DNA from: Nocardia sp. NBC_00565
Lineage (GTDB): Bacteria > Actinomycetota > Actinomycetes > Mycobacteriales > Mycobacteriaceae
Assembly: GCF_036345915.1 (NCBI RefSeq)
Contig: NZ_CP107785.1
Coordinates: forward strand, 4,588,001-4,652,000
DNA: 64,000 bases
Direction: 5' to 3'
Shown one piece after another: positions 61,144-62,042 of the stretch. The notes beneath the pieces are model-generated. The model searched no databases. It worked only from the letters and a program-made list of their open reading frames with translations, and was not told where the DNA came from. Position 1 is the first letter of the stretch; each line of letters opens with the position of its first letter. Both the position numbers and the translations under genes were made by a program.

Positions 61144-61821
61144 TCAGTGCAATCCCAATTCGTGCAGAGCTTTCATCTGCAGCTGCGCGTATCGCGAATG
61201 CGACGCAACGATTCGATCGACGAGTACGGCTGTCTCGCTGGGTGAGAGATCGAATTCAGACGGCTGCCGATCGTTTTCCGCGCACCAGTCCAGCACCGCA
61301 TCGAAACCGCAGATCGACGCAATGAACTCCCGTCGATCGACGTGCTGCCAAGCCTTGACGAGTTCATCGAGCAACGATGGCCGCGCCGCAAGCATCGCAA
61401 CCACCCGACGCCTGACCCTGGCGAGGTAGGCGGGCGAGTTCGGTTGCGCGAGTTTGACTTCGACACTCATCTGCCACCCGAGTTGCTCCGCACGCTCGGC
61501 AACGAGCCGACAGAGCGAGATCGAACCGCCTTCCATGATCACCAACGGATGAGTCCGCACCAGCCCGCTCGTCGTTCGCACCAGCTCCGAGAACGCGCTT
61601 TCGGCACCCAGCTCCCCGAGGGACAATGTTCGATCGTCAAGATAGATTCGCCGGGTCCCAGCCAGCTCCCCGGCGGTCGGGCGGCCGCTGACCACAGCCA
61701 AATCTCGAAAACACTGGAAACGATCCAGAACCACGACTGGGGCTCCGGTGACGTGGGCCAGTCGAACCGAGGCAGCAGTCTTACCCGTCCCGGTGGGACC
61801 GAGGATCAGATCGACTTGCAA
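61144..61821 (-). CDS. ipt: Isopentenyltransferase, Ipt/Tzs/FasD type (cytokinin synthase)
   Basis: 225 residues. P-loop LILGPTGTGKTAASVRLA, then VVVLDRFQCFRDLAVVSGRPT, GTRRIYLDDRTLSLGEL and LVIMEGGSISLCRL follow Agrobacterium Ipt (LIFGPTCTGKT, LSLDRVQCCPQL, SGRPTVEELKGTSRLYLDD, LILEGGSISLLK) almost step by step, including length. These enzymes join a prenyl group to AMP, the first step of cytokinin synthesis; they differ from the tRNA-modifying MiaA, which is longer and has other motifs. The start is TTG at 61821, two bases after the stop of the P450 fragment, so translation depends on coupling to it; no better in-frame start lies near. In Rhodococcus fascians the ipt gene fasD belongs to the fas operon that also has a P450. 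The LOG and cytokinin oxidase genes are not in the window. Confidence 0.85.
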   Translation of the reverse strand: MQVDLILGPTGTGKTAASVRLAHVTGAPVVVLDRFQCFRDLAVVSGRPTAGELAGTRRIYLDDRTLSLGELGAESAFSELVRTTSGLVRTHPLVIMEGGSISLCRLVAERAEQLGWQMSVEVKLAQPNSPAYLARVRRRVVAMLAARPSLLDELVKAWQHVDRREFIASICGFDAVLDWCAENDRQPSEFDLSPSETAVLVDRIVASHSRYAQLQMKALHELGLH

Positions 61822-61823
61822 TG

Positions 61824-62042
61824 CTATCCGCTTACCATCAAACGGCTGTGCACCGGGTCCATCTCGCGATAGCGGGCGTACACCGAATACGGATCCAACA
61901 GAGTCGCAATATCGTGCGGATCGAAACGAGTCACCGCGTCGCCAGCAGTACTTGGCATTTTCTCGTCGGCGCTCACTGCTTCGACGCGCTCGACGGCCCT
62001 GACCACGGGCATCGGTGGACCTTTGGTCTTGCTTCCGACCAT
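61824..62042 (-). pseudogene. Cytochrome P450 N-terminal fragment
   Basis: 72 residues ending FDPHDIATLLDPYSVYARYREMDPVHSRLMVSG. The 'DPYxxYxxxREMDPVH' phrase is the typical beginning of bacterial P450s. No I-helix, ExxR or heme loop follows; the frame stops at TAG and the ipt gene begins two bases later. The rest of the P450 has been lost, or this short form is kept to drive ipt translation. FasA, the first gene of the fas operon, is a P450, so this may be its remnant. Confidence 0.65.

What the first reader, a model, noticed from the sequence alone, without database searches (positions are those of the whole stretch)
61144..62042. Cytokinin-type isopentenyltransferase coupled to a P450 stub
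The ipt product follows Agrobacterium Ipt and FasD motif by motif (P-loop, DRFQC, SGRPT, RIYLDDR, EGGSIS), not the tRNA-modifying MiaA. It starts with TTG two bases after the stop of a P450 N-terminal fragment. In Rhodococcus fascians the fas operon has a P450 (fasA) and this ipt (fasD). Here the order P450-ipt is kept but most of the P450 and the ferredoxin, LOG and oxidase genes are missing in view. A cytokinin gene of this class in a Nocardia-like genome would be unusual, and the flanks (940 bp of debris, AT-rich islands) suggest acquisition.
Basis: partly seen in the sequence, partly recalled or inferred. Interest (0 to 1): 0.8.

Follow-up and report, generated by a model that had tools for sequence, protein, structure and literature searches.

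The report
Cytokinin gene beside a gutted P450
A Nocardia genome carries an intact gene for making the plant hormone cytokinin, sitting directly behind a P450 enzyme gene whose middle appears to have been cut out, and a second hormone gene set elsewhere in the same genome is shared with a Nocardia reported to cause galls on blueberry.

Summary
Confirmed and corrected. 61144-61821(-) encodes a 225-aa adenylate isopentenyltransferase, Ipt1 (Pfam IPT, E 6e-57; predicted fold TM 0.89 to an Agrobacterium enzyme; tested catalytic residues kept), not MiaA. The 72-codon stub 2 bp upstream is a P450 remnant. Lentzea flava has an intact pair: a 414-aa P450 directly upstream of an Ipt1-clade ipt. Against it, the Nocardia stub keeps the P450's first part and its last ~7 codons plus the stop/start junction, and lacks ~1,104 bp (368 codons, in frame).

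So this is not a piece of the fas operon. Its P450 belongs to a subfamily separate from FasA, with one member fused to LOG. Ipt1 falls outside the FasD clade in the best tree, though an AU test does not exclude it. The residue pair that lets Tzs use HMBPP is replaced (C171/Y211), so Ipt1 should use DMAPP and make isopentenyladenine-type cytokinin.

It lies in the FasD clade, in an ipt-orf-LOG operon shared with N. vinacea and the blueberry-gall species N. vaccinii. 5 of 150 genomes of the genus have any such ipt. The left flank holds real gene debris. Whether Ipt1 is expressed is unknown.

The parts
61144..61821 (-). ipt1, adenylate isopentenyltransferase, 225 aa, TTG start; tested catalytic positions kept
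61824..62042 (-). P450 remnant, 72 codons, stop 2 bp before the ipt1 start
61848..62042 (-). N-terminal piece of the P450 (codons 1-65; codons 28-65 match the start of the Lentzea flava P450 as called here; codons 1-27 have no counterpart there)
61837..61847 (-). deletion junction: 11 bp here against 1,115 bp in Lentzea flava, difference 1,104 bp = 368 codons
61824..61847 (-). C-terminal tail of the P450 (last 7 codons and stop), 5 of 7 residues as in Lentzea flava
60275..60410 (+). debris: fragment 87.5% identical to part of a 169-codon ORF (no Pfam match) in another Nocardia genome
60546..60880 (+). debris: two pieces of a BPD-type ABC transporter permease gene (69% over 296 bp, 91% over 43 bp), with a stretch between them missing
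57284..60205 (+). left boundary: gene 57284-58138, kynureninase-like gene (58135-59361) and PaaX-like regulator (59342-60205); 18 of 147 other genomes of the genus have single matches over 2.5 kb to this block; matches end at about 60183-60194
62219..62749 (+). right boundary: pentapeptide-repeat protein gene, divergent from the P450 remnant

Best explanation
Ipt1 is an adenylate isopentenyltransferase that came in as part of a two-gene unit, P450-ipt, of a kind intact in Lentzea flava. In this lineage one in-frame internal deletion of about 1.1 kb removed the P450's catalytic body (heme-binding and ExxR regions) and kept its start, its last codons and the stop/start junction, so ipt can still be translated behind it. 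SHOWN: the anatomy, open ipt, conserved catalytic residues, predicted fold, the deletion against Lentzea. INFERRED: Ipt1 joins DMAPP to AMP to give iPRMP; LOG from elsewhere in the genome (the ipt2-LOG operon or the other LOG genes) frees isopentenyladenine; the lost P450 would have hydroxylated the side chain to zeatin type, so the deletion leaves an iP-type producer. Expression is not shown.
For: Pfam IPT E 6e-57. AlphaFold model pLDDT 96.4, best PDB match 2ze5 (adenosine phosphate-isopentenyltransferase), TM 0.89, 1.9 A. Tzs T10/D33/R34/R138 equivalents kept in 37 of 37 non-MiaA rows. Separated from MiaA with 100/99 support; Ipt1 in a 6-row clade (98/95) with M. boenickei, Lentzea flava, Litchfieldella and two proteins of unnamed source. 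Lentzea flava: intact P450 (L117:8717-9961) directly before ipt (L117:9965-10666). DNA matches on both sides of the junction, 48 bp at 75% and 72 bp at 72%, lie 11 bp apart here and 1,115 bp apart there. Last 7 residues match 5 of 7; 0 of the other 2,590 ORF ends in the 184-kb region reach 5 (the test was set after seeing the match). One member of the P450 subfamily is fused to LOG (P0049), which ties it to cytokinin. C171/Y211 replace Tzs D173/H214; the review PMC8234997 (section 2.1 read) ties those residues to HMBPP use.
Against: No expression data. No close relative of Ipt1 (best 54-55%) to test for purifying selection. The flank is a decay zone, so ipt1 may be on its way out too. TTG start, no clear ribosome site by eye. 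Only one intact P450-ipt pair was read; a second (P0041/P0010) is inferred only from equal contig length. The deposited Lentzea P450 record (P0031) starts 20 residues later than the ORF used here, leaving an 18-residue match to the stub (78%, E 1e-5). Litchfieldella's neighbouring P450 is only about 22% identical to the Lentzea one and convergent. A Ti-plasmid ipt (L036) also has the C/Y pair, so the pair alone may not settle donor choice. P0049's LOG part is under the cut-off of the cytokinin-specific LOG model (100 against 300 bits). The P450's reaction is untested here, and most of its relatives' contexts could not be seen.
Confidence: 0.72

Rival explanations
1. Whole locus is a dead relic: ipt1 is no longer expressed and has simply not yet picked up a stop.
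For: Neighbour P450 lost; debris of two other genes at 60275-60880; TTG start; GC3 69%, 3rd percentile of 96 neighbouring genes. The promoter scan found 0 sites, but only 0.5 are expected by chance, so it says little.
Against: 225 codons open with the tested catalytic residues kept; the P450 deletion is in frame and keeps the stop/start junction, as expected if ipt translation mattered (1 in 3 by chance for the frame). The protein cluster P0001 has 2 member sequences on a 35,201-base contig, which suggests, but does not show, that another assembly holds it.
Confidence: 0.3
2. Remnant of a Rhodococcus-type fas operon.
For: Ipt and P450 in the same order; AU test does not reject Ipt1 with the FasD clade (p 0.156).
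Against: FasA is not the stub's relative; fasA and fasD are not adjacent in fas; no FasB, FasC or FasE match at 1e-4 in 184 kb; best tree puts Ipt1 in another clade.
Confidence: 0.06
3. Ipt1 serves secondary metabolism (prenylated adenine as a building block) rather than phytohormone signalling.
For: Two giant genes take about 24 of the window's 64 kb (not analysed); two ipt relatives sit beside MFS transporters and unknown genes on actinobacterial plasmids.
Against: The nearest giant gene ends about 32 kb away, with kynureninase and PaaX-like genes next to the locus (smaller genes in between were not analysed); the P450-LOG fusion points to ordinary cytokinin chemistry.
Confidence: 0.13
4. 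The stub is a functional short peptide or leader, or the deletion is an assembly error.
For: The stub frame still has coding-like codon use and keeps a stop/start junction with ipt.
Against: DNA and protein match both ends of a full-length P450; genome is a single 9.7-Mb contig scored 100% complete, 2.6% contamination, but its reads were not seen.
Confidence: 0.08
5. Ipt1 is a tRNA-modifying MiaA or another P-loop kinase.
For: Weak MiaA score, 25 bits.
Against: the genome has its own MiaA-like protein (L003:913-1830), one of the two outgroup rows of the trees.
Confidence: 0.01

Closest known systems
Agrobacterium Tzs/Tmr adenylate isopentenyltransferases (Pfam PF01745)
   Same: Fold, P-loop, catalytic residues, size.
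   Different: 33-38% identity to the 40 listed plasmid-borne relatives of 169; HMBPP-selecting D/H pair replaced by C/Y; here on the single 9.7-Mb contig, no separate plasmid.
Rhodococcus fascians fas operon (fasA P450, fasD ipt, fasF LOG)
   Same: A P450 and an ipt in one transcription direction.
   Different: P450 subfamily, adjacency, Ipt clade in best tree; no fasB, fasC, fasE match near; LOG not adjacent.
Lentzea flava P450-ipt pair (L117; named through P0011/P0031)
   Same: Same clade of Ipt, same order, near-identical spacing, both ends of the P450.
   Different: P450 intact there, lacking 368 codons here.
Nostoc NoIPT1-type Ipt
   Same: Both HMBPP-selecting residues replaced; Y at the second position (NoIPT1 residues from PMC8234997; Nostoc rows).
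   Different: Different clade.
Claviceps purpurea IPT-LOG plus P450 (fungal)
   Same: P450 needed for hydroxylated cytokinins (passage in PMC5521058).
   Different: Fungal enzymes; known here only through that passage.

Membership tests
Adenylate isopentenyltransferase (PF01745) | Near full-length IPT domain over curated cut-off, outside MiaA | tested here: met
   193 bits against cut-off 20, positions 1-222/233; 100/99 split from MiaA. The Pfam cut-off alone is weak: 9 of 14 control genomes also pass it
Adenylate isopentenyltransferase (PF01745) | Catalytic T10, D33, R34, R138 (Tzs numbering) | tested here: met
   roles from PMC8234997 section 2.1
Adenylate isopentenyltransferase (PF01745) | Prenylates AMP | not testable with these tools
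   needs an enzyme assay
HMBPP-using (zeatin-type) Tzs/Tmr subgroup | D173 and H214 pair | tested here: not met
   C171 and Y211 in Ipt1; C/Y in all 4 clade rows of that alignment; also C/Y in the Ti-plasmid ipt L036
fas operon | FasA-type P450 | tested here: not met
   no significant stub-FasA match; Lentzea P450 clade excludes FasA (quick tree with long branches)
fas operon | fasB, fasC, fasE genes nearby | tested here: not met
   no tblastn hit at 1e-4 in the contiguous 184 kb; rest of the genome not searched for them
fas operon | LOG adjacent | tested here: not met
   no FasF match in the window or the next 20 kb; five PF03641 matches elsewhere in the genome, two of them weak
fas operon | Ipt in FasD clade | tested here: inconclusive
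   outside in best tree but AU p 0.156
Ipt-linked P450 subfamily (P0029-like) | N-terminal region and C-terminal tail | tested here: met
Functional P450 | ExxR and heme-binding Cys motifs | tested here: not met
   neither in the 72-aa stub (read by eye in the translation); no P450-motif ORF in window 52001-64000 plus 8 kb

The most novel reading that the evidence does not exclude
The Lentzea/LOG-fused P450 subfamily is a dedicated bacterial cytokinin hydroxylase, separate from FasA, that evolved as a translationally coupled partner of a DMAPP-only Ipt. In this Nocardia the hydroxylase alone was cut out in frame, turning a zeatin-type unit into an isopentenyladenine-type one without breaking ipt translation, beside a second ipt-LOG operon shared with a gall-inducing Nocardia.
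Probability: 0.35. Interest if true: 0.75.

Novelty: new variant of a known kind. Interest (0 to 1): 0.55.

Why it matters
How bacteria make trans-zeatin by P450 is poorly known: the review PMC8234997 (passage) says the FasA protein was not characterised, though cytokinin content of a fasA mutant points to hydroxylation; PMC7261884 (passage) reports that a fasA deletion mutant still causes disease. A P450 subfamily found directly beside an ipt in one genome and fused to LOG in another is a concrete candidate enzyme to test. Separately, N. vaccinii is reported to cause galls on blueberry (PMC8783487 passage, citing a 1952 paper); an ipt-orf-LOG operon in its genome (L032), shared with this genome, makes the cause directly testable by gene removal. 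One library search for N. vaccinii with cytokinin gave one general review, not opened.

Tried and rejected
MiaA or kinase: rejected. FasA as source of the stub: rejected. The longer 309-aa reading of the ipt frame from ATG 62073: rejected, the extra 84 codons score badly as coding (-0.23 per codon against +0.07 for the stub frame). An intact copy of the same P450 elsewhere in the genome: 61 matches to the Lentzea P450, none above 40% identity, so no close copy. Ipt1-like genes in the genus of G182 (thought to be Mycobacterium, name not shown): 0 of 396 genomes at 1e-15; the tool warns that an empty answer without a positive control shows little. A search for the P450 subfamily in 401 genomes of the family found nothing at 1e-100; that threshold was severe, and no genome in the set was known to match. 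A PE-family search meant to recognise Mycobacterium was uninformative. Rfam, tRNA, promoter and repeat scans gave nothing useful. Trees: P0001, P0009, P0024 and L064 were left out as the window's own protein or duplicates, the further Lentzea ipts were not added, and five rows had N-terminal extensions trimmed. The P450 tree is a quick tree of 29 chosen rows (25 of the 120 listed hits of 2,988, plus 4 others; P0049 entered without its LOG part), and it warns that FasA and the L039 P450 are long branches that may be joined falsely. The 7-residue tail test uses one reference (Lentzea) and was set after the match was seen.

Full report
WHAT IS THERE. The window is bases 4,588,001-4,652,000 of a single-contig 9.71-Mb genome. 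At 61144-61821(-) there is a 225-codon gene starting with TTG, two bases after the stop of a 72-codon ORF at 61824-62042(-). In the ipt frame no other ATG, GTG or TTG lies between 62073 and the P-loop. The one database entry found for this protein (P0001, 183 aa) starts at residue 43 and so misses the P-loop and the catalytic Asp.

IPT1 IS AN ADENYLATE ISOPENTENYLTRANSFERASE. Pfam IPT scores E 6.1e-57 over positions 1-222 of 233, while the MiaA model scores 25 bits against a cut-off of 149. The nearest solved sequence is the isopentenyltransferase 2ze5 (E 4e-32), which is Agrobacterium Tzs by recall and by the residue numbers in PMC8234997. An AlphaFold model (pLDDT 96.4) matches 2ze5 at TM 0.89 and 1.9 A; the plant enzyme reaches 0.78 and tRNA enzymes 0.64-0.76. 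The residues equivalent to Tzs T10, D33, R34 and R138 are present in 37 of 37 aligned non-MiaA proteins, Ipt1 included. Their roles are taken from the review PMC8234997, section 2.1, read in full. The same section says that Tzs D173 and H214 allow use of HMBPP, that FasD has A/H and prefers DMAPP, and that Nostoc NoIPT1 has V/Y and barely uses HMBPP. Ipt1 has C171/Y211, as do its three nearest relatives in that alignment; so does one Ti-plasmid ipt (L036), which tempers the inference. The prediction is an iP-type enzyme using DMAPP.

PLACE IN THE FAMILY. In a 57-row tree Ipt1 falls in a six-row clade (98/95) with proteins of Mycolicibacterium boenickei, Lentzea flava, Litchfieldella anticariensis and two proteins of unnamed source. 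FasD sits in another 18-row clade (100/98), which also holds a second ipt of this genome. Against this, an AU test does not reject Ipt1 as part of the FasD clade (p 0.156), so the separation is favoured but not proven. Among 150 genomes of the genus, 5 have such an ipt at 1e-12, and only this one has two. In a sample of 397 genomes of the order there were 3, this genome included.

THE STUB. The 72-aa ORF has no Pfam hit. Its nine listed PDB matches are all P450s but weak, best E 0.04. The decisive comparison is Lentzea flava (genome G902; its Ipt is identical to the named protein P0011). There a complete 414-aa P450 (L117:8717-9961) lies directly before an Ipt1-clade gene (L117:9965-10666), in the same direction with a three-base gap. 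The deposited records of both proteins (P0011, P0031) list a contig of the same length, 31,603. The stub matches the start of that P450 (55% over 38 aa, E 5e-11 for the single comparison). The deposited record P0031 starts 20 residues later, which would leave an 18-residue match (78%, E 1e-5); other members of the subfamily, however, share the longer N-terminus. Among 122 P450 proteins compared, the stub's best match is a Nocardia P450, P0044 (60% over 35 aa). Its last seven residues match the last seven of the Lentzea P450 in five positions. Of the 2,590 other ORF ends in the surrounding 184 kb, none reaches five and two reach four; this test was chosen after the match was seen. At DNA level, a 48-bp match and a 72-bp match lie 11 bp apart here and 1,115 bp apart in Lentzea, so the difference is 1,104 bp or 368 codons. 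The simplest reading is one in-frame internal deletion of the P450 that kept the stop/start junction with ipt. The stub's first 27 codons have no counterpart in the Lentzea protein.

WHICH P450. The Lentzea P450 belongs to a subfamily (47-64% identity to it among the nearest full-length hits) found in Pseudonocardia, Nocardia, Mycobacterium, Archangium and metagenomes (120 of 2,988 hits listed). One member, P0049, is a LOG-P450 fusion (general LOG-family model TIGR00730 145 bits against a cut-off of 96; the cytokinin-specific LOG model 100 bits against 300, so below it). Its P450 part falls inside the subfamily in a quick 29-row tree from which FasA is excluded (21-row clade, SH-aLRT 96). A second likely P450-ipt pair is P0041 with P0010, inferred only because both list a 5,880-base contig. 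In Litchfieldella, ipt stands in a low-GC island (0.43-0.46, neighbours mostly 0.57-0.64) with an isopentenyl-diphosphate isomerase gene before it and a convergent P450 after it; that P450 is remote (about 22% identity). Across 30 fetched ipt loci other than the window, an intact P450 was seen in 3: Litchfieldella, a Thermomonosporaceae MAG and pFiD188; L117, fetched later, makes a fourth in 31. So a P450 neighbour is the exception in the family at large. The present genome has 61 matches to the Lentzea P450, none above 40% identity.

NOT THE FAS OPERON. In pFiD188 the order is P450, ferredoxin, transketolase, ipt, FAD-binding protein (the oxidase), LOG. FasB, FasC and FasE give no match at 1e-4 in the 184 kb around ipt1, and FasA matches only three P450 regions of the window, more than 19 kb away, at 23-32% identity.

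THE SECOND IPT. At 4,518,075-4,518,863(-), about 130 kb away, a 262-aa Ipt2 is followed by a 117-aa ORF and a LOG gene (gap 39 bases, then a 4-base overlap). The LOG scores 190 bits on TIGR00730 (cut-off 96) and 256 on the cytokinin-specific model (cut-off 300). Ipt2 is 84-85% identical to proteins of N. vinacea and N. vaccinii and 76% to N. gamkensis. The same ipt-orf-LOG order is in N. vinacea and N. vaccinii; in N. gamkensis no middle ORF was matched. N. vaccinii is reported to cause galls on blueberry (PMC8783487, passages only). LOG occurs in 12 of 27 loci compared, and this genome has five PF03641 matches, two of them weak, so activation of an Ipt1 product in trans is possible.

SURROUNDINGS AND ORIGIN. 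To the left, a block of three genes (57284-60205, including kynureninase-like and PaaX-like genes) is matched over more than 2.5 kb in 18 of 147 other genomes of the genus, and the matches stop at about 60183-60194. Then come remnants: 60275-60410, 87.5% identical to part of a gene elsewhere in another Nocardia; and 60546-60880, pieces of a BPD-type ABC permease gene with a stretch missing between them. Ipt1 GC3 is 69%, the 3rd percentile of 96 neighbouring genes; Ipt2 is at the 21st. With the patchy distribution this supports acquisition, but no tRNA or convincing repeat boundary was found; integrase genes were not searched for. The GC dip next to the gene is matched by one outside the locus.

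LITERATURE. Searches of the held library for isopentenyltransferase + Nocardia + cytokinin (4 papers), N. vaccinii + cytokinin (1), N. vaccinii + gall (9), isopentenyl transferase + P450 + Streptomyces + cytokinin + cluster (1) and related sets (20 of 254 listed) listed no paper whose title describes a Nocardia ipt or a P450-ipt pair of this kind. Passages were read in PMC4092121, PMC7261884, PMC5521058, PMC6071968, PMC12066119, PMC8783487 and PMC8234997 (plus its section 2.1 in full). Papers outside this library were not searched.

LIMITS. No expression or enzyme data; no close relative of Ipt1 for a selection test; one intact reference pair; several relatives known only as proteins. That the P450 made zeatin-type cytokinin is inference.

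Noticed in passing
G000:C1:4517128-4518863 (L002:536-2271, minus strand): Second ipt in an ipt-orf117-LOG operon, FasD clade, shared with N. vinacea and the gall species N. vaccinii.
   Followed up: yes
L002:1090-1443 (-): The 117-aa ORF between ipt2 and LOG resembles phage protein family phrog_1810 (E 1.7e-8, unknown function); odd place for a phage-like gene.
   Followed up: partly
   Followed up: partly
L018:7370-10103: Litchfieldella low-GC island: isopentenyl-diphosphate isomerase, ipt and convergent P450.
   Followed up: partly
L020:5603-8507: Nostoc sp. FACHB-152: ipt, LOG and a near full-length match to the cytokinin oxidase FasE (40% over 435 aa) in a row.
   Followed up: no
L048:9741-10568: A Nocardia with a single-contig genome (G127) has a divergent ipt with no FasF/LOG match in the fetched 20 kb.
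   Followed up: no
window 1-7126 and 12124-29313: Two giant genes (7,535 and 5,729 codons; the first starts before the window), probably multidomain synthases; not analysed.
   Followed up: no
window 62804-63250 (-): 148-aa ORF whose DNA is matched in many Nocardia genomes, no Pfam or NCBIfam match; a gene at 4557269-4557676 begins with similar residues (by eye).
   Followed up: no
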